Shown here: positions 3,992-12,285 of the stretch, piece by piece
How the letters are laid out: each line of letters starts with the position of its first letter
How positions within the stretch are numbered: position 1 is the first letter of the stretch
From: an uncultured Eubacteriaceae bacterium
GTDB taxonomy: Bacteria > Bacillota > Clostridia > Eubacteriales > Eubacteriaceae
Reading direction: 5' to 3'
Assembly: GCA_947625175.1 (NCBI GenBank)
Contig: CANQNI010000026.1
Span: forward strand, 1 to 13,012
Length of the DNA stretch: 13,012 bases
Position numbers and translations under genes: made by a program
Notes under the pieces: model-generated
Databases searched by the model: none
Told to the model about the DNA's origin: nothing
The model's input: only the letters and a program-made list of their open reading frames with translations

Positions 3992-4699
3992 TTATAATTC
4001 AATTCTTAAGCCGGATCTTTCTTCTTCTTTAATAAAACTATAGCGGCTTTCTTCTTTATATCTAAAGATACCAGCTATTTTAAAGCTGGCCTTATCTAGA
4101 TAGTTTAGGATATCCATTAGAGCTGATGACTTTTCTGTTAGGATAAAACTATCTATCTTAGCGGCTTCTAGAATAGCTCGAAGCTCTTTATACATTTCTA
4201 TATTCTTATAATCTCTTAGAGAGTCTATCTTTAAGAATGTATTACCGTTATCTCGACCGGTGTTATAGTGAAATAAGATATTCCAGTGAGCTTCGGACGG
4301 ACATCTCTCTCTAGTTTCTTCTAGAAGCTTATCTAAATAGCTATTCTTAAAAGTAGCTTCGTTATTTCTTCTTTCTTCTAATTCTTTTCTAGCTTCTATA
4401 TCTCTTAACTCTCTTTCTTTATCCTCTTTAATTCTTCTTAAGACTTCTTCTAGCTCGCTTTCAAATCTCTTATACTGTCTCTTACCTAAAACCTGAGTTC
4501 CTTTATTATCTTCTATATTCATTACTATATCCGTATCTATAACGCCTAGCTTAACTTCTAAGAAGCTTTTACCGGACTGCCATTTAATACTATAAATATC
4601 CCAGTTATAATCGTTTCTAGTATATATAGCTTTCTTTTCTCTTACTAAATCTTTCATTAACTCTACTAAATACTTTTCTTTCTTAGTCACTTTTAACAT
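3992..4699 (-). CDS. Hypothetical protein with central coiled coil
   Basis: A 235-aa protein that I do not recognise. The N-terminal third is mixed alpha-beta and basic. Residues 77-114 are a long charged helix, probably a coiled coil (ELEEVLRRIKEDKERELRDI). The C-terminal half (DKLLEETRERCPSEAHWNILFHY and later SSALMDILNYLDKASFKIAGIF) is a separate folded domain. The start needs checking. At ATG 4699 the sequence AGGAG abuts the start codon with no spacing. The in-frame GTG three codons later (4688-4690) has AGGAG 9 bases upstream and may be the real start, giving 232 aa. The gene follows the hairpin at 4744-4780, and I see no copy of the palindrome/TGTACA promoter before it. Confidence 0.72.
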   Translation of the reverse strand: MLKVTKKEKYLVELMKDLVREKKAIYTRNDYNWDIYSIKWQSGKSFLEVKLGVIDTDIVMNIEDNKGTQVLGKRQYKRFESELEEVLRRIKEDKERELRDIEARKELEERRNNEATFKNSYLDKLLEETRERCPSEAHWNILFHYNTGRDNGNTFLKIDSLRDYKNIEMYKELRAILEAAKIDSFILTEKSSALMDILNYLDKASFKIAGIFRYKEESRYSFIKEEERSGLRIEL

Positions 4700-4743
4700 C
4701 TCCTAGTTTTAAAGTTTTATTTAAAAGCTTAAAAAGCTTAATT

Positions 4744-4780
4744 TAGAAGCCTCTAGAAGAAGTAACTCTAGAAGCTTCTA
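4744..4780 (-). terminator. Hairpin after the 114-aa gene
   Basis: Two 14-base arms (4744-4757 and 4767-4780) pair with one mismatch (a G-U pair in RNA) around a 9-base loop. It lies 10 bases past the stop of the leftward gene ending at 4791. Read leftward the following bases are AATTAAGCTTTTTAAG, so the T-run is displaced; termination may be partial. Confidence 0.5.
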
Positions 4781-4790
4781 TATAAGCTCT

Positions 4791-5135
4791 CTAACTATTC
4801 TTCTTATATAAGTCGATATAACTTAGAAACTCTTTCTTAAATTCTCTAGAATACTTAACCGCTTTATAATCTTTAGAAGCGACTAGCTTATATTCTGGTG
4901 TAGGATAATAATCAATTAAGCTATCATTTCTATTAATATTAATAGCCGAGACTCCTAAGTTTGTGCAGTAGCTATCGCTTTCATATTCGATAGTTAAGTA
5001 AGTTTCTTGAGTTTCATAATCTCCGTCAATATCAATTACTACTGTAAAATCATCATTTTCAACTAAGCCTTCATTTTCTTCTACTAACTCTACTAAGTAT
5101 TCAAATTCTTTTTCGTTTAAAATTAAATCTTTCAT
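4791..5135 (-). CDS. Hypothetical acidic protein
   Basis: A 114-aa acidic protein that I do not recognise. It starts with an acidic helix (EKEFEYLVELVEENEGL), followed by alternating strands (FTVVIDIDGDYETQETYLTIEY) and a short C-terminal helix. The start has a strong ribosome site, AGGAG, 6 bases before ATG, which overlaps the end of the upstream 87-aa gene; the two stop and start 9 bases apart and are clearly one unit. That unit starts at the promoter at 5450-5501 and ends at the hairpin at 4744-4780. Small acidic proteins are common among phage inhibitors of host DNA-binding enzymes, but nothing in the sequence proves this. Confidence 0.72.
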   Translation of the reverse strand: MKDLILNEKEFEYLVELVEENEGLVENDDFTVVIDIDGDYETQETYLTIEYESDSYCTNLGVSAININRNDSLIDYYPTPEYKLVASKDYKAVKYSREFKKEFLSYIDLYKKNS

Positions 5136-5144
5136 TTTTATCTC

Positions 5145-5408
5145 CTATCTATTAATCTTTTCTAGCTCTCTCTTAAAAGTAATTCTTGAAACATCATATA
5201 CAGCTTCATAACCGATTGAGTAATAAACCGAGTAAGTATCTAAATCAATATTTACTAAAAAAGCTTTTTCATCTTCTTCACTTTCTACTCCTAAGATTAA
5301 TTCGTTTCCGAGATCTTCGAAGTATAAATTATCGAAGCTTAAAATATCTATAACAACTTTTCTGTCTTCTCTTTTTAAATTCTTTAAAATCTTTATCGCT
5401 TTTTCCAA
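5145..5408 (-). CDS. Hypothetical acidic protein, TTG start
   Basis: An 87-aa acidic protein that I do not recognise: a basic N-terminal helix (KAIKILKNLKREDRK), then strand-like segments (NELILGVESEEDEKAFLVNIDL) and a basic end. The fold plan of acidic strands after one helix recalls its downstream neighbour. The start codon is TTG. A ribosome site (AAAGGA) lies about 12 bases before it, which is long, and no closer start exists in frame. It is the first gene of the unit from the promoter at 5450-5501, with a leader of about 35 bases. Weak initiation from TTG with a stretched spacing would keep expression low despite a good promoter. Confidence 0.65.
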   Translation of the reverse strand: MEKAIKILKNLKREDRKVVIDILSFDNLYFEDLGNELILGVESEEDEKAFLVNIDLDTYSVYYSIGYEAVYDVSRITFKRELEKINR

Positions 5409-5449
5409 TAGTTTTAAAGTTCCTTTCGCTTTATCTTTACTATACTTAT

Positions 5450-5501
5450 AGTATAAGGGGAGTCAACGGCATTGTACAGGGATAATATTAAAATTTTAAT
5501 A
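5450..5501 (-). promoter_or_regulatory. Promoter A: AT palindrome + TGTACA + TATACT
   Basis: Read leftward: palindrome TATTAAAATTTTAATA (5486-5501), 7 bases, TGTACA (5473-5478), 17 bases, TATACT (5450-5455). A second, conventional reading also exists: TTGACT (5461-5466), 16 bases, TATAGT (5439-5444). The agreement with the copies at 3161-3212 and 3937-3988 favours the first reading. It drives the 87-aa and 114-aa genes. Confidence 0.75.
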
Positions 5502-5510
5502 AAAACATTA

Positions 5511-5534
5511 AAAAAAGAAGTCTCTAAAGAGACT
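5511..5534 (-). terminator. Intrinsic terminator after the recombinase operon
   Basis: Read leftward: a perfect 7-bp stem AGTCTCT/AGAGACT (5519-5534) around a two-base centre, closed one base further by flanking pairs, then TCTTTTTT (5511-5518). This is the best terminator in the window. It ends transcription coming from the repressor-recombinase operon, 112 bases past the recombinase stop and just before promoter A. Confidence 0.75.
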
Positions 5535-5645
5535 CCGTGAAATATAGTTAATATCTAGTTTATTTAGCTTTTAATATAGTTTAGTTTTAATTACTTTTTA
5601 CTTTAATTATTAAAATTATAATAACTCTAGAATAAAAAAAGACTT
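5535..5645. other. AT-rich non-coding stretch downstream of the recombinase; possible attachment region
   Basis: No gene. It holds a 9-bp direct repeat AATATAGTT (5541-5549 and 5573-5581), several TAGTTWA-like words, and a one-mismatch relative of the promoter palindrome (TATTAAAATTATAATA, 5608-5623). The phage attachment site of a serine recombinase usually lies next to its gene. The 5' end of this recombinase gene overlaps its neighbour, so this 3' stretch is the most likely place, but I cannot identify a core. Confidence 0.3.
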
Positions 5646-7190
5646 CTAAGAAGCTAGTTTATATTCTTTTAGATTAAAAGAGTAAGAGAGATAGCCCTCA
5701 TCATAAAATTCTACTGTGTTCAAAATAGTTTCGTTTTGGCGTGCCATTATGACATTAACCGAACACTCTTGAGATAAAAAAGTTCCGGACTCTCCGGGAA
5801 AGCAGTAATTATAATAAATAGTTACTATGCCTTTAGTATAGACAATAGAATTTATAAAGTTGTTTATAAAAGTGATCTTATCGTGTTCGCTTTTAATATA
5901 TTTAGTTTTAAAGTTTTTTAATGCCCATCTAACCGCTTCTTCTTTCGGTGATGGGTATTTTACTTCCTCGGCGAGTATTAAGCCCTTAATATTACTTAGC
6001 TCAGTCTCTAGCTCATTAATCTTAGTTACTATTAGCTCGCTTACATTTCCCAGCTCGAGAGCGTTTAAGAGATTATTAAGTCTATTTTCCGTATCTTGCT
6101 TTTGCTTCTTTAAAGCAGGCAGTTTATTATTAGAAGAGTCTTTATTATAGAAAGAGACAACTCTTTTAGCCAGCTCATCTATAATTTCATCTTTTAGGAC
6201 TTCGTTAAAAGTTATTTCTAATACGGCTTCTTCTATTTCTTCTTTCTTTAAAATATCATTATTACAGTTAGAAGCTTTCTTCTTTCTAGCTCGACACTTA
6301 TAATAATGATACTTTTCACCGCTTCTAGAAGTACCGGACTCGGACGTATAAAGCTCTCCGCATACGCCGCACTTTAAAAGTCCGCTAAGTAGATAGTATT
6401 CTCCTTTAGATCTTTTATGATAGCTACTTACTTTATTTAATTCCTGGGCTTTAAAGAAAACTTCCTTATCTAATAACGGCTCGAAAGCGTCGGGAATAAT
6501 AACATCTCCGTAAACATAAGTACCGATATATTTAGGATTAGAAAGAATATTATCTAGAGTTCCTCTCTGAATCTTTTTACCTTTCTTATTTCTTAGATTA
6601 TGTTCATCTAAATATCTTAGAATTTCCGCTCTAGTATAGCCGTCAATATATAACTGATAGATAAGTCTTACTATAGGAGCTTTTTCCTCATCTATAACTA
6701 TCTTAGAGTCTTTAGACTTCTTTAATCCTAAAGGAAGCTGGCCATTTACCATAGCTTTAAGAGCGTTAGAGTGCATGCCTCTTTTTACGTTCTGGGCTAA
6801 ATTAGCCGAATAATACTCTGCGAGTCCCTCCATAACCGACTCTAGAATTATTCCGCTCGGATCGTTAGGAATATTCTCTTTAGCCGAGATTAAAGTAACG
6901 CCATTCTTTTTAAGCTTTAGCTTATTAACAGCCATTTCTTCTCTATTTCTACCGAACCTATCGAGTTTCCAAACTAAGACTACTTCGAAAGCTTTACTAT
7001 CCGAGTCTTTAAGCATTTTCTGAAACTCATCTCTATTATCGCTTCTACCTGACTTAGCATAATCGGCATAAGTCTTAATTATATTAATATTATTATCTTT
7101 AGCATATTCGAGACAGTCGTTAATTTGATCTTCTATAGACTGTTCTCTTTGTCCTAAACTACTATATCTAGCGTAAATTACTCCGTTCAT
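5646..7190 (-). CDS. int: Large serine recombinase (phage integrase)
   Basis: A 514-aa large serine recombinase that would integrate and excise the phage by cutting attP and attB. The N-terminal catalytic domain has Arg8 and Ser10 in YARYSS (Ser10 is the nucleophile), then VVLVWKLDRFGRN (residues 70-82) with the conserved Arg78, and the helix E that ends near residue 145. The recombinase domain follows (residues 165-255; GTLDNILSNPKYIGTYVYG). A zinc ribbon has Cys274, Cys277, Cys299 and Cys309. A coiled coil (about 365-410) is placed as usual for control of direction. The length fits the family. The start overlaps the end of the upstream YubB-like gene by 23 bases and has only a weak ribosome site, which implies translational coupling. 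It is the last gene of the lysogeny operon. No separate excision factor is recognisable. Confidence 0.95.
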   Translation of the reverse strand: MNGVIYARYSSLGQREQSIEDQINDCLEYAKDNNINIIKTYADYAKSGRSDNRDEFQKMLKDSDSKAFEVVLVWKLDRFGRNREEMAVNKLKLKKNGVTLISAKENIPNDPSGIILESVMEGLAEYYSANLAQNVKRGMHSNALKAMVNGQLPLGLKKSKDSKIVIDEEKAPIVRLIYQLYIDGYTRAEILRYLDEHNLRNKKGKKIQRGTLDNILSNPKYIGTYVYGDVIIPDAFEPLLDKEVFFKAQELNKVSSYHKRSKGEYYLLSGLLKCGVCGELYTSESGTSRSGEKYHYYKCRARKKKASNCNNDILKKEEIEEAVLEITFNEVLKDEIIDELAKRVVSFYNKDSSNNKLPALKKQKQDTENRLNNLLNALELGNVSELIVTKINELETELSNIKGLILAEEVKYPSPKEEAVRWALKNFKTKYIKSEHDKITFINNFINSIVYTKGIVTIYYNYCFPGESGTFLSQECSVNVIMARQNETILNTVEFYDEGYLSYSFNLKEYKLAS

Positions 7191-8975: not shown

Positions 8976-9346
8976 TAACTCTCCTCTAATTCCTGCTCTA
9001 TTCTTAACTCTTCGGCTTTACTAAGTAACTTAAGCTTTCTATCTAAGTCTAGAGAGTTAAATTTATCTACTAAGTCTATTCTTAGCTTAACTAGCTCTAA
9101 ATCCTCTTCTTTTTTAGCGTTTAAAATATAACCCTCGCCTGTTCTAAACCAGACCGGATTAATATTAAACTCGAATTGTAGAGCTTTTAGAAAGCGTTCA
9201 TCTACTTTAGTAAAGCCCTGCTCGAAGTGGCTATAAGCCGGTTGATTTAAGCCGAATCTTTCTGCCATTACTTCTTGAGATAAGCCGAAGAAGCTTCGAA
9301 TTTCTCGAAGCCTTTCGCCCTCTTTAATACTTCCGTTTACTTTCAT
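8975..9346 (-). CDS. XRE-family transcriptional regulator
   Basis: A 123-aa protein with an XRE helix-turn-helix at residues 11-65 (RLREIRSFFGLSQEVMAERF, then AYSHFEQG) and the phrase INPVWFRTGEG, which is common in phage CI-like regulators at the end of the DNA-binding domain. The remaining 50 residues are a charged helix (DLDRKLKLLSKAEELRIEQEL), probably for dimerisation. It lacks any peptidase domain, unlike the neighbouring repressor. The start overlaps the repressor's stop by one base (TAATG) and has no clear ribosome site, so translation depends on the repressor gene. It could help the repressor, oppose it, or control integration. Confidence 0.87.
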   Translation of the reverse strand: MKVNGSIKEGERLREIRSFFGLSQEVMAERFGLNQPAYSHFEQGFTKVDERFLKALQFEFNINPVWFRTGEGYILNAKKEEDLELVKLRIDLVDKFNSLDLDRKLKLLSKAEELRIEQELEES

Positions 9347-9990
9347 TAAATTTTACCGTCAACCTTTCCTAAAATTTCTGCGTTATACTTCTTAGTTAAA
9401 TTAATAGTCTCATTTTCCGGATTGCTGGCTTCTAGTCTATCTATTAAGTACTTTCTAATAATTATTCTATCTTTATACTTAAATAGTCCTATATCACCCT
9501 CATTTAGAATTTCCGTAGGTGTAACTATTAAAACGTCGCCGTCCTCAAATAGAGGTGCCATAGAATTACCGACTAAAGTATAAAGCTTATAATTCTTAGG
9601 ATAAGCTCTAGAAGCTAACTCAGGTATCTCTAAGACTCTATCATTAACTTCTTCGTTAAACTTAAGCTTATTCTTATAATAGAAGTCTATTTGTAATTCT
9701 ATAGCTTTTCTATTACTCGAATTAATAGCTCTTAACTTCTTTAAGATCTCCTGCTCTTTCTTAGAGGTAGTAAAAGTAATTGGCTCTACTTCTATATCAT
9801 CTTGAAATAAGTAGTTTAGATCACAACCTAAAATATTAGAGATCTTAACAACTAAATCCATAGACGGCGAGCTAAAGTCAGTTTCATAGTGTCCTATCGA
9901 GCCCTCGGTTATTCCAAGCTCTTTAGCTAAAGCTTTTCTACTTATCTTACGATATTCTCGGAGCTCTCTCATTCGACTTCCTAGACTCAT
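9346..9990 (-). CDS. LexA/CI-type repressor (XRE HTH + S24 peptidase)
   Basis: A 214-aa immunity repressor. Residues 5-60 are an XRE helix-turn-helix (MRELREYRKISRKALAKELG, GSIGHYET). Residues 118-214 are an S24 serine peptidase-like domain with Ser143 in GNSMAP and Lys180 in IIIRKYL, 37 residues apart, as in E. coli LexA (Ser119/Lys156). Such repressors cut themselves when RecA is activated, which induces the prophage. I see no Ala-Gly pair at the usual cleavage region before Ser143, only ELASRAYPK. I chose the ATG at 9990 because GGAG lies 8 bases upstream; the longer frame to 10080 adds 30 hydrophobic residues from AT-rich promoter DNA. Met7 (AGGA 6 bases upstream) is a second possible start. 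It is the first gene of the leftward operon and faces the Cro-like gene across 282 bases. Confidence 0.92.
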   Translation of the reverse strand: MSLGSRMRELREYRKISRKALAKELGITEGSIGHYETDFSSPSMDLVVKISNILGCDLNYLFQDDIEVEPITFTTSKKEQEILKKLRAINSSNRKAIELQIDFYYKNKLKFNEEVNDRVLEIPELASRAYPKNYKLYTLVGNSMAPLFEDGDVLIVTPTEILNEGDIGLFKYKDRIIIRKYLIDRLEASNPENETINLTKKYNAEILGKVDGKI

Positions 9991-10090
9991 CTTTTTTACT
10001 CCGTCAATTAATTTAAGATAATTATAATATATATTTAAAAAAATTTTAAGGAATATTATAAAAAACTTATAGAAAAACATAAAAATCTAT

Positions 10091-10192: not shown

Positions 10193-10222
10193 TTTACATA
10201 ATTAATAAGCACCTTATATAAT
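10193..10222 (+). promoter_or_regulatory. Rightward early promoter
   Basis: TTTACA (10193-10198) is followed by 16 bases to TATATA (10215-10220) or 18 bases to TATAAT (10217-10222). It points toward the Cro-like gene and the early recombination genes, about 50 bases before the start codon. Confidence 0.6.
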
Positions 10223-10272: not shown

Positions 10273-10485
10273 ATGGATGAAATTAATGTTGGATTAAAGA
10301 TTAAAGACTATTTAAAGAAGAACGGCATTAAACAGACTTATTTAGCAAATCAGTTAAATAGAAATGATGCCGAATTAAGCTTCTTATTAACAGGTAAAAT
10401 TAAATTAACTGCCAATGAATTTATTAGGATTACTAATATACTTAACACAACTCCTAATGAAATTTTAGATATTACTAGTAGATAG
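10273..10485 (+). CDS. Cro-like XRE helix-turn-helix protein
   Basis: A 70-aa protein that is almost entirely one XRE helix-turn-helix domain (KIKDYLKKNGIKQTYLANQL, then SFLLTGKIKLTANEFIRI and NTTPNEIL). It is divergent from the S24 repressor and is the first gene of the rightward transcript, the classic place of Cro, which shuts off the repressor and commits to lytic growth. The sequence AAELSFLLTGK differs from typical recognition helices in having Asp-Ala-Glu (residues 32-34), but the frame of the domain is clear. The ribosome site is GAGGAAAGG just before ATG. The gene is followed 12 bases later by a 48-aa gene. Confidence 0.85.
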   Translation: MDEINVGLKIKDYLKKNGIKQTYLANQLNRNDAELSFLLTGKIKLTANEFIRITNILNTTPNEILDITSR

Positions 10486-10497
10486 AGTAAGTAAGTT

Positions 10498-10644
10498 ATG
10501 GAAAAGTTAAATGAGAAGCTCTTCGATAACCTAGCTGAGTTACTAGCTAGAGTCTTTAAAGACTCTAAAGACTGGGCTAATGACTACGAAGCAGAAACCG
10601 GTCAGAAAGCCTTTAACGAAGAAGCTCTAGAAAAAGCTAGTTAA
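10498..10644 (+). CDS. Small hypothetical protein (48 aa)
   Basis: A 48-aa protein, acidic and probably all helical: MEKLNEKLFDNLAELLARVF, then KDSKDWANDYEAETGQKAF. It begins 12 bases after the Cro-like stop in the same direction. Its codon use (CTA, GAA, AGA, GCT) matches its neighbours, which argues that it is real despite its size. The ribosome site is poor (GAG about 9 bases upstream). It ends 22 bases before the long inverted-repeat RNA at 10667. I do not recognise a family. Confidence 0.55.
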   Translation: MEKLNEKLFDNLAELLARVFKDSKDWANDYEAETGQKAFNEEALEKAS

Positions 10645-10666
10645 TTTATAGTTTTTACGGCTCTTT

Positions 10667-10927
10667 AACCGCTATCGTACTAAGTAGAGATAGATCTGAA
10701 TATAACTCCGTAGATTAAAATATCAGTTTACTTAGCACATTAACATATAAAGCCATTAATACCCAATTTAGAGATAAAAACAGAAGATGATGTCTGTTAG
10801 AGTTGCGCAATTAAAACTTCCTTTCTGTAATGCGGATTAATTTCTTCGGCTCTTAGTTAAAGATCTAAAAAGAAAGACTATCTCTACTAAGTAGGGTAGC
10901 GGTTATAGAAGTAGTTTTTATTTTTTT
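10667..10927 (+). ncRNA. Candidate structured non-coding RNA with a 27-bp closing stem
   Basis: Two 27-base arms (10667-10693 and 10878-10904) pair with 24 standard pairs, one G-U pair and two mismatches, enclosing about 184 bases. Inside, AGATCT/AGATCT (10692-10697 with 10861-10866) extends the stem past a bulge, AGCC/GGCT (10751-10754 with 10848-10851) forms an inner helix, and AACAGA/TCTGTT (10779-10798) forms a hairpin. The 3' arm is followed by a T-rich tract (10915-10927) on the plus strand only, which fixes the likely strand. The stretch has stops in all frames, no start with a ribosome site, and fewer CTAG words than the genes around it. I do not recognise it as a known RNA family. 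It lies in the early transcript between the 48-aa and 91-aa genes. Confidence 0.65.
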
Positions 10928-10964
10928 AATTTAATTTAAAACGTTTGCTTAATAAGGAGTTTAA

Positions 10965-11240
10965 ATGAAAGAAAAGCGAGTTACTAAGGATAATGTTCTA
11001 GATAGAGTTGAATCTATAGCTCTAACTAGACTAGTTGAAAATGTTCGTGATTATAAGAATGATTATTTTGTTGAGCGCAATCGCTGGGAAGATGTTAAAG
11101 AAGCTCTATATGATTATTTTGATACGGTTACTAAAGTTAATGAGCTTAAAGATATAGAGCAAGCTAAAGAAGAAGCTCTCTTTAATGCTTCGTTTAAGAA
11201 AGAATTAAAGGATTTAAAATTAATAAGTTTAGAGAAATAA
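10965..11240 (+). CDS. Hypothetical early protein
   Basis: A 91-aa charged, probably all-helical protein that I do not recognise (SIALTRLVENVRDYKNDYFV, then RWEDVKEALYDYFDTVTKVN). A strong ribosome site, AAGGAG, lies 5 bases before ATG. Its codon choice is different from its neighbours: more GTT, GAT and AAT, and CTA less dominant. It lies directly after the T-rich end of the candidate RNA and before the structured leader of the exonuclease gene, so it stands between two RNA structures. Because the T tract may end most transcripts before it, it might need anti-termination or its own promoter; I see none with certainty. Confidence 0.72.
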   Translation: MKEKRVTKDNVLDRVESIALTRLVENVRDYKNDYFVERNRWEDVKEALYDYFDTVTKVNELKDIEQAKEEALFNASFKKELKDLKLISLEK

Positions 11241-11243
11241 AAA

Positions 11244-11273
11244 ATGCTACGCTTAACCGGCAATTCTAGATAA
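11244..11273 (+). CDS. Possible 9-aa leader peptide
   Basis: ATG at 11244, nine codons (MLRLTGNSR), stop TAA at 11271-11273. Its body covers the 5' strand of both competing helices in the yqaJ leader, so translating it would block them. No ribosome site beyond an A-rich stretch is seen, so the call is weak. Confidence 0.2.
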   Translation: MLRLTGNSR

Positions 11274-11318
11274 GCATAGCCCAACAACTAAGTCTAGAAT
11301 AGCACGGCTTAAAGTAGC
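11246..11318 (+). promoter_or_regulatory. Structured, switch-like leader of the exonuclease gene
   Basis: Two folds compete. Fold 1: GCTAC (11246-11250) with GTAGC (11314-11318), an inner TTAA/TTAA and CCG/CGG extension, and a perfect 8-bp helix ATTCTAGA/TCTAGAAT (11263-11270 with 11293-11300). Fold 2: GCTACGCTTA (11246-11255) with TAAGCATAGC (11271-11280), 9 of 10 pairs. The folds share their 5' strand, so only one can form. It ends 16 bases before the yqaJ start, which lacks a ribosome site. Confidence 0.55.
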
Positions 11319-11334: not shown

Positions 11335-12285
11335 ATGAAAAAAGAAAAATTAACTTATATTAAGCCGAAAGACAGAAAAGACTGGCTAGAAATTAGAAGA
11401 AGCGGAATAGGCGGAAGCGACGCCGCTGTTATCGTTAATTTAAATAAGTATAGAAGCCCTTATCTTTTATGGCTCGATAAGCTCGGACAATTAGAAGAAG
11501 TAGAGCAGAACGAAGCCATGAGACAAGGCTCTGATCTCGAAGCTTATGTAGCTAAACGCTTTACCGAAGAAACAGGTAAGCGAGTTAGAAGAAGAGCTCA
11601 AGTAATAAAGAATCCTAAATATCCGTGGGCTTTAGCTAATGTTGATCGCTGGATTATAGGAGAGAACGCCGGACTCGAATGTAAGACTATTAATAAACAG
11701 TATTGGCAACAATTCGAAGACGGTGAATTTCCGAGCCACTATTATATTCAGTGCTTACACTATATGGCAATAACCGGAGCGGATAAATACTACTTAGCTG
11801 TTTTAGTCTATCAAGAGGGCTTTCACGTATTCGAGTTTACTAGAGACGAAGAAGCTATAGCCGATCTAATGCAGGCGGAAGAGGCTTTCTGGGAATATGT
11901 TAAAACCGAAACGCCGCCGCCAGTAGACGGTACTAAAGCGACGGAAGAAGCTCTAAGAATCCAGTATAAAGATAAAGAGCTAAAAGAGGACTCTATTGTT
12001 CTTTACGGATTAAACGAAGAAGCCGATAGACTAGAAGAGCTTAAGAATGAAAAGAAAAGGATCTCTAAAGAGATAGCAACTATAGAGCAGGATATTAAAT
12101 CCAATTTAGGTGAGTATACTATCGGAGAAACTGATCGCTTTAGCTTTAGCTGGAAACCTCAAGTATATAAAACTTTTAAGCCCGATGAGCTGGCTAAAGA
12201 CTATCCGGATATTGATATATCTAAATACTATAACGAATCAGTTAGAAGAGTTTTTAGAAGTAAAAAGCTAAAGGGGAGAAAATGA
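11335..12285 (+). CDS. YqaJ-type viral recombinase exonuclease (lambda Exo-like)
   Basis: A 316-aa nuclease of the YqaJ family, which has the PD-(D/E)XK fold of lambda exonuclease. It degrades one strand of double-stranded DNA 5' to 3' and leaves a tail for the annealing protein RecT. The opening WLEIRRSGIGGSDAAVIVN (residues 17-35) is the family signature; Glu69 (QGSDLE), Asp104 (NVDRW) and Glu115-x-Lys117 (LECKT) are the metal and catalytic residues, with Gln139 (YYIQC) in the expected following helix. The last 100 residues are a coiled coil and a basic tail (RRVFRSKKLKGRK). No Shine-Dalgarno sequence precedes the ATG; instead a structured leader (11246-11318) ends 16 bases upstream, which suggests translational control. 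It overlaps the next gene by four bases and lies 461 bases before recT. Confidence 0.93.
   Translation: MKKEKLTYIKPKDRKDWLEIRRSGIGGSDAAVIVNLNKYRSPYLLWLDKLGQLEEVEQNEAMRQGSDLEAYVAKRFTEETGKRVRRRAQVIKNPKYPWALANVDRWIIGENAGLECKTINKQYWQQFEDGEFPSHYYIQCLHYMAITGADKYYLAVLVYQEGFHVFEFTRDEEAIADLMQAEEAFWEYVKTETPPPVDGTKATEEALRIQYKDKELKEDSIVLYGLNEEADRLEELKNEKKRISKEIATIEQDIKSNLGEYTIGETDRFSFSWKPQVYKTFKPDELAKDYPDIDISKYYNESVRRVFRSKKLKGRK

What the first reader, a model, noticed from the sequence alone, without database searches (positions are those of the whole stretch)
10667..10927. Unassigned structured RNA with a 27-bp closing stem in the phage early operon
Arms at 10667-10693 and 10878-10904 pair at 25 of 27 positions (one G-U) around about 184 bases with further helices, and a T-rich tract follows on the plus strand. 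Nothing coding explains it. Each arm also carries the near-palindrome TACTAAGTAG, so the RNA or DNA could also form local hairpins or dimers. It sits between the Cro-like gene and the exonuclease, where anti-terminators, decoy RNAs or immunity RNAs are known in phages. I cannot match it to 6S, tmRNA, ROOL, GOLLD or a riboswitch.
Basis: partly seen in the sequence, partly recalled or inferred. Interest (0 to 1): 0.82.

Follow-up and report, generated by a model that had tools for sequence, protein, structure and literature searches.

The report
Long RNA stem between phage genes
A prophage carries a long, near-perfect RNA hairpin between two of its early genes, probably a cut or stop mark that splits its first message, and stems of similar build turn up in some other phages.

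Summary
The inverted repeat is real: 28 of 32 positions pair (10662-10693 with 10878-10909), scoring 20 against at most 16 in 200 shuffles. It is noncoding and lies in the rightward early region, between a Cro-like gene plus 48-codon ORF and a 91-codon ORF plus YqaJ exonuclease. The 'further helices' are not supported: the 184-nt interior folds no better than shuffles (z +0.45). No Rfam match and no DNA relative was found, so covariation in this stem could not be tested. A U-tract follows; it holds the only T7 run on the window's plus strand. I read it as a cis-acting intercistronic RNA stem that makes an mRNA boundary by RNase III-type cleavage, termination, or both. Indirect support from 257 sources (window included): noncoding stems lying before early genes show G.U over A.C on the operon strand (31:8); repeats inside ORFs do not (38:38). 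A follow-up set was too small to confirm this (3:2), and the window's own stem is neutral (1:0). New variant of a known kind; a trans-acting RNA is not shown.

The parts
9346..10080 (-). CI-like repressor (HTH and S24 peptidase)
   Evidence: Pfam and PHROGs
10193..10222 (+). promoter-like site (TTTACA, 18, TATAAT; 11 of 12), possible start of the rightward early transcript
   Evidence: 10 sites found in 1.4 kb against 5.7 (sd 2.6) in shuffles, so a consensus match only
10273..10485 (+). Cro-like gene
   Evidence: weak HTH matches just under the Pfam cut-offs, phrog_3 and phrog_1468
10498..10644 (+). 48-codon ORF without a family
10657..10693 (+). 5' side of the long stem (core 10662-10693)
10694..10877 (+). 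184-nt interior, unstructured beyond chance, noncoding
10878..10915 (+). 3' side of the long stem (core 10878-10909; extension to 10915 in the fold of 10655-10927 only)
   Evidence: in the fold of 10640-10970 the stem ends at 10909
10916..10927 (+). U-tract (U4-A-U7)
10965..11240 (+). 91-codon ORF; one relative, 97% identical, among 5.8 billion proteins
11246..11318 (+). second stem, in the next gap before YqaJ (about 21 Watson-Crick pairs with small bulges, short loop)
   Evidence: (z -2.96)
11335..12285 (+). YqaJ / RecE-like exonuclease
   Evidence: PF09588, phrog_434

Best explanation
It is a cis-acting intercistronic RNA stem in the rightward early transcript of a prophage. The nascent mRNA folds so that about 10657-10693 pairs with 10878-10915 around an unstructured 184-nt loop. 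This double strand marks an mRNA boundary between the immediate-early part (Cro-like gene, 48-codon ORF) and the rest (91-codon ORF, YqaJ). The most likely act is cleavage of the stem by host RNase III, as in T7 and SP82 early mRNA, with the U-tract after the stem giving at least partial termination of uncleaved transcripts. Shown: the repeat, its place, the U-tract, no coding, no structured interior. Inferred: that it is transcribed, that it pairs in the cell, and what cuts or stops there.
For: Stem far beyond shuffles; noncoding; interior unstructured, as in the 13 other loops tested (z -2.35 to +1.01 over 14). Stems of similar build in early regions of other Bacillota phages. Strand-symmetric count over 257 sources: 16 noncoding repeats before an early gene have G.U 31 to A.C 8 on the operon strand (p 3e-4), 23 repeats inside ORFs 38 to 38; by element 11 favour G.U, 1 A.C, 1 ties, 3 have neither. 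A second stem fills the next gap of the same operon. The U-tract holds the only plus-strand T7 run of the window. [quoted passage not shown] SP82 early mRNA by the B. subtilis enzyme (titles in a reference list).
Against: The window's own stem adds almost nothing to the strand test: 1 G.U, 0 A.C, 3 other mismatches; over longer arms 1 G.U, 1 A.C, 4 others, and its second stem 0 G.U, 1 A.C. The follow-up set gave 5 such repeats, 3:2, against 6:3 inside ORFs: no confirmation. The 13 repeats in neither class had 21:13 (p 0.23). Shuffled loci also give such repeats: score 17 or more, 30 real (not deduplicated) against 2 and 9; 15 or more, 61 against 25 and 25. No relative, so no covariation. The loop is far longer than the 60-nt T7 R1.1 substrate. 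In a longer stretch the U-tract is not next to the stem. The other elements lack a U-tract like this one. Cleavage is untested.
Confidence: 0.5

Rival explanations
1. A conditional transcription terminator or attenuator at the place of lambda tR1: the long-range stem and U-tract stop the early transcript unless the fold is prevented by translation, a protein or fast elongation. No cleavage needed.
For: In the fold of 10655-10927 the stem runs to 10915 and U4-A-U7 follows directly. T7 runs are scarce in this DNA (4 on both strands, 20.2 expected from shuffles) and this is the only one on the plus strand. Place behind a Cro-like gene.
Against: A 184-nt loop is far from the short loop of known intrinsic terminators (recalled); the terminator scan, limited to loops of 3-8, found 0. 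In the fold of 10640-10970 the stem ends at 10909 and the U-tract starts unpaired in a loop. The comparable stems elsewhere have no such U-tract.
Confidence: 0.2
2. A DNA-level pair of sites: two operator-like or recombination sites in opposite orientation, for looping or for inverting the 184-bp segment.
For: Each arm holds an imperfect palindrome around TACT-A-AGTA. In L175, L044 and L083 similar far-apart repeats are near-perfect palindromes, as operator pairs would be. A serine recombinase lies in the window.
Against: Pairing between the arms is much better than the palindrome within each. Only 3 of the 16 noncoding repeats look like palindrome pairs; the rest lean to G.U. No inverted or second copy was found. 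The recombinase looks like the phage integrase.
Confidence: 0.12
3. A trans-acting small RNA of about 260 nt (decoy, immunity or antisense RNA), closed by the stem and ending in the U-tract.
For: Stem at both ends, U-tract at the 3' side, noncoding, no Rfam match. A -10-like TATAGT lies just before the left arm.
Against: Interior unstructured. The promoter scan lists no plus-strand site just before the arm. No conservation could be shown. The loop's 17-nt match to the host gapA start is chance-like.
Confidence: 0.1
4. A MITE-like insertion: a small non-coding mobile element with 32-bp terminal inverted repeats and a 9-bp target duplication (TAGTTTTTA at 10649-10657 and 10912-10920).
For: Long terminal repeats, noncoding unstructured middle, flanking 9-bp repeat.
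Against: The flanking repeat is 2 nt out of register with the arms and A+T-rich. No other copy of the arm with up to 3 mismatches in the 67 genomes of the order, G000 included, and no exact arm pattern in IMG/VR.
Confidence: 0.06

Closest known systems
RNase III processing sites in early mRNA of phage T7 (R sites) and of Bacillus phage SP82
   Same: Double-stranded RNA between early genes of a phage operon, more than one per operon. T7's early mRNA is processed at five sites by host RNase III (PMC4858673, passages).
   Different: The loop is 184 nt; T7 R1.1 used as substrate gives 47- and 13-nt products. Here a U-tract follows. Cleavage unknown. For SP82 I saw only titles in a reference list.
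Intrinsic terminator / lambda tR1-like early terminator
   Same: Stem followed by a U-tract, behind a Cro-like gene.
   Different: Very long loop; not found by the terminator scan, whose loop limit is 8. Lambda comparison is recalled.
Known phage and bacterial RNAs (6S, tmRNA, phi29 pRNA, ROOL, GOLLD, EAR, HK022 put, retron RNA)
   Same: RNAs with paired ends or a place in early phage mRNA (recalled).
   Different: No Rfam match at gathering score over the window and none relevant at E up to 5 around the element; no tRNA or tmRNA; no reverse transcriptase among the proteins scanned, up to 10 in each. I did not check that each of these has an Rfam model.
MITEs (small non-autonomous inverted-repeat elements)
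   Same: Long terminal inverted repeats around a short noncoding middle.
   Different: No second copy found; flanking repeat out of register.

Membership tests
phage early-mRNA RNase III site (T7/SP82 type) | lies between genes of the early operon | tested here: met
   between the 48- and 91-codon ORFs behind a Cro-like gene, no coding inside; that they form one transcript is inferred
phage early-mRNA RNase III site (T7/SP82 type) | about 20 or more pairs of double-stranded RNA (recalled requirement) | tested here: met
   28 Watson-Crick pairs of 32 positions
phage early-mRNA RNase III site (T7/SP82 type) | selected as RNA of the operon strand | tested here: inconclusive
   window 1 G.U, 0 A.C; comparable stems 31:8 with the window, follow-up 3:2
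phage early-mRNA RNase III site (T7/SP82 type) | cleaved by RNase III | not testable with these tools
   needs RNA or enzyme
intrinsic terminator | stem directly followed by a U-tract | tested here: inconclusive
   met in the fold of 10655-10927, not in that of 10640-10970
intrinsic terminator | short loop | tested here: not met
   184 nt; scan with loop limit 8 found 0
trans-acting structured noncoding RNA | structure beyond the closing stem | tested here: not met
   z +0.45
trans-acting structured noncoding RNA | matches a described family | tested here: not met
MITE | target duplication in register with the repeats | tested here: not met
   9-bp direct repeat offset by 2 nt (read)
MITE | further copies in the genome or relatives | tested here: not met
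   only the two arms themselves in 67 genomes, up to 3 mismatches; G000 is 84% complete
invertible DNA switch | segment found in both orientations | not testable with these tools
   no relative or read data

The most novel reading that the evidence does not exclude
Some temperate phages of Bacillota carry a so far undescribed kind of intercistronic RNA element: a stem of roughly 20-30 pairs around a 44-192-nt unstructured loop, placed before early genes, several per operon in some phages, without shared sequence, kept by selection on the operon-strand RNA. It would set early-gene mRNA boundaries by host RNase III, or insulate ribosome sites, and the window holds a member that also has a U-tract.
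Probability: 0.35. Interest if true: 0.6.

Novelty: new variant of a known kind. Interest (0 to 1): 0.42.

Why it matters
If true, some temperate phages of Bacillota would divide their early operons with long double-stranded RNA marks that have no fixed sequence, so that homology searches and Rfam miss them. The strand test (G.U against A.C, with repeats inside ORFs as control) is a cheap way to tell RNA stems from DNA repeats where no homologue exists. It would also tie prophage early expression to host RNase III, which in Bacillus subtilis is essential because of resident prophages (titles of PMC3531473 and PMC3531482, listing).

Tried and rejected
Rfam at gathering score and at E up to 5 around the element: 3 weak matches, far under their gathering scores. 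DNA relatives: blastn in phages, none; plasmids, one 41-base match; 101 relatives, 40 of the family at E up to 0.1 (10 of 40 genomes with short matches), 67 of the order (5 of 67, short A+T-rich matches), 398 of the phylum: nothing beyond short chance-like matches. Patterns of both stem halves in GTDB and IMG/VR: 0; arm pattern in IMG/VR: 0.

Host gapA start: the loop holds 17 nt identical to the start of the host gapA gene, sense strand. Other matches of 41 bits against its 37 occur in the same genome with a longer query, so I treat it as chance. A CRISPR-repeat reading of it was dropped: no repeat array in L022 or L010. A 96% match of 25 nt in G037 lies in a long ORF that looks like a GGDEF gene (name from recall).

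Anti-Shine-Dalgarno motif in the loop: seen first, then tested: p 0.005 in the window, under 0.005 in L062, its homologue L065 and L090, 0.015 in L101, 0.165 or more in the other 6 of 11; in 5 fresh elements none reached 0.05 (lowest 0.055). Rejected as a general feature.

L055 repeat: in two divergent HTH-like ORFs, a coding artefact. L151: looks like a dispersed genomic repeat (recalled likeness). Antisense type I toxin idea (31-codon hydrophobic stretch on the minus strand): not followed. Covariation elsewhere: L062, L066, L065 read A-U, G-U, G-C at one pair; L101 and L107 have identical arms and diverged loops: too few to count.

Choices made. The search for related loci kept the best 80 of 256, 337, 575, 559 and 579 confirmed loci, three of these lists cut at 600 stretches. 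One search was given 147 of the 160 YqaJ loci regions picked from its output plus L111. Elements were picked by eye. Searches used RNA energy or hand-picked elements (43 real against 20 in one shuffle at -32 kcal/mol; G.U 52 to A.C 16), which favours G.U, so I do not rest on them. One search used all 257 sources (several are the same contig fetched twice; repeats were deduplicated by arm) and no energy filter: 53 repeats = 16 noncoding before a gene on the operon strand, 1 before a gene on the other strand (2:0), 13 neither (21:13), 23 in ORFs. Its crude ORF filter does not list L101 and L111 as noncoding, L062 falls in 'neither', and L083, L175, L044 (operator-like) are among the 16 without adding mismatches. 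The excess of 16 over 1 by orientation is no evidence, as the loci were turned along the operon. One search dropped 20 repeats already seen. The 'antisense' start calls at position 0 are artefacts of the script.

Full report
What is there. The window is contig G000:C26 of a genome given as 84% complete. It carries part of a prophage: a serine recombinase, HTH regulators, a CI-like repressor with S24 peptidase and, rightward, a Cro-like gene, a 48-codon ORF, a 91-codon ORF and a YqaJ/RecE-like exonuclease. Between the 48- and 91-codon ORFs lie 320 noncoding bases (10645-10964) with the reported inverted repeat.

The observation. Arms 10662-10693 and 10878-10909 pair at 28 of 32 positions. With +1/-2 scoring the window reaches 20 and 200 dinucleotide shuffles of all 13 kb at most 16; with mismatches at -3 it is 16 against 15 in 60 shuffles. 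The RNA 10655-10927 folds at -70.5 kcal/mol, z -4.95; the minus strand of 10645-10927 at z -3.63. The interior alone has z +0.45, so the 'further helices' are no more than chance, and the local arm hairpins are weak. In the fold the stem continues with mismatches to 10657-10915 and U4-A-U7 follows; in the fold of the longer stretch 10640-10970 it ends at 10909 and the U-tract starts unpaired. T7 runs are scarce in this DNA (4 on both strands, 20.2 expected), and the only one on the plus strand is 10921-10927. A second stem, 11246-11318, fills the next gap, before YqaJ (z -2.96).

Relatives. No DNA relative of the element was found where I could look. The 91-codon ORF has one relative, 97% identical on a 1208-base contig, among 5.8 billion proteins. 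So the covariation test asked for could not be made on this stem.

Comparable stems. I fetched YqaJ and RecT regions, the best 80 of each list, from IMG/VR and GTDB genomes and looked for the build rather than the sequence. Long stems with large loops turned up in gaps of early operons: L162 (Absicoccus porci, two in tandem before YqaJ), L111 (before YqaJ, where a longer ORF reading overlaps it), L062/L065 (behind an HTH-looking ORF, not scanned), L110, L114, L101/L107, L090, L234, and four in L212 and three in L263. Of 14 picked elements, 6 have a ribosome site and an ATG starting 14-23 nt after the stem, 4 (the window among them) one at 33-55 nt, 2 a GTG, 2 none. The 14 loops tested are unstructured (z -2.35 to +1.01).

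RNA or DNA. A stem kept as RNA of one strand tolerates G.U on that strand but not A.C; a DNA repeat or a coding accident should show both alike. With a strand-symmetric selection (BLAST self-match, score 15 or more, gap 40-260) over 257 sources and 1.98 Mb (one search gives the size), 53 deduplicated repeats remained. Sixteen noncoding ones before an early gene, the window included, had 31 G.U and 8 A.C (p 3e-4); 23 within ORFs had 38 and 38; 13 others 21 and 13; 1 before a gene on the other strand had 2 and 0. By element, 11 favour G.U, 1 A.C, 1 ties and 3 have neither (p 0.006 by sign). Part of the set must be chance: at score 17 or more there are 30 real repeats, not deduplicated, against 2 and 9 in two shuffles. 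In a follow-up set of 146 further loci, with 20 repeats already seen dropped, only 5 such repeats were left, 3:2, with 6:3 in 7 repeats inside ORFs: no power and no confirmation. The window's stem itself has 1 G.U, 0 A.C and 3 other mismatches, so it is placed with the rest by place and build, not by this test.

How it most likely works. Double-stranded RNA between genes of phage early mRNA has a known use: T7's early transcript is cut at five sites by host RNase III (PMC4858673, passages read), and SP82 early mRNA by the Bacillus subtilis enzyme (titles in a reference list; content recalled). I take cleavage of the stem, separating the Cro-like gene's message from the 91-codon ORF and YqaJ, as the most likely act. 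The U-tract makes termination a close second, and both may occur: a folded but uncut transcript could end there. I give 0.5 to the cis-acting reading led by cleavage, 0.2 to conditional termination alone, 0.12 to a DNA-level pair of sites, 0.1 to a trans-acting small RNA and 0.06 to a MITE.

What is known. Nothing in Rfam fits. My paper searches for such elements listed nothing on point: five returned no paper, and seven by title. Of the 2021 survey of structured RNAs in human microbiomes (PMC8040213) I saw three passages, none on this. The library holds open-licence papers only, so absence there says little. I file the element as a new variant of a known kind: it would work like an intercistronic processing or stop signal, but with a far larger loop than the 60-nt T7 R1.1 substrate, and cleavage is untested.

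Noticed in passing
window 11246-11318 (+): A second imperfect stem (about 21 Watson-Crick pairs, short loop) fills the gap just before YqaJ, z -2.96; YqaJ has no clear ribosome site there.
   Followed up: partly
window 4692-4797, 1985-2110, 677-768, 5400-5650 (-): Strong hairpins with short loops also lie in gaps of the leftward genes; two are followed by T-runs as terminators would be.
   Followed up: partly
window, all: T7 runs are depleted: 4 on both strands against 20.2 expected from dinucleotide shuffles.
   Followed up: no
window 10781-10814: The loop resembles the start of the host gapA gene, sense strand (17 nt identical, then a 2-nt gap). Probably chance.
   Followed up: partly
window 10715-10810 (-): An antisense stop-to-stop stretch of 31 codons, hydrophobic, starting with TTG behind an AGAAAGGAAG-like ribosome site.
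   Followed up: no
L212 3357-3994 and 5535-5682; L263 3584-4089: Rumen phage contigs with four and three long stems each in early-operon gaps, with A-rich unstructured loops; some arms of the two share letters.
   Followed up: partly
L162 3040-3184 and 3211-3455: Two tandem long stems fill the 470-nt gap before YqaJ in the cultured Absicoccus porci; the gap folds at z -18 with 24 shuffles.
   Followed up: partly
L044 1303-1552, L083 108-436, L175 1065-1332: Far-apart repeats that are themselves palindromes, probably repressor operator pairs.
   Followed up: no
L101 2228-2381 and L107 2204-2359: Arms identical in both contigs while the loops have diverged with insertions and deletions; flanking genes not compared.
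   Followed up: no
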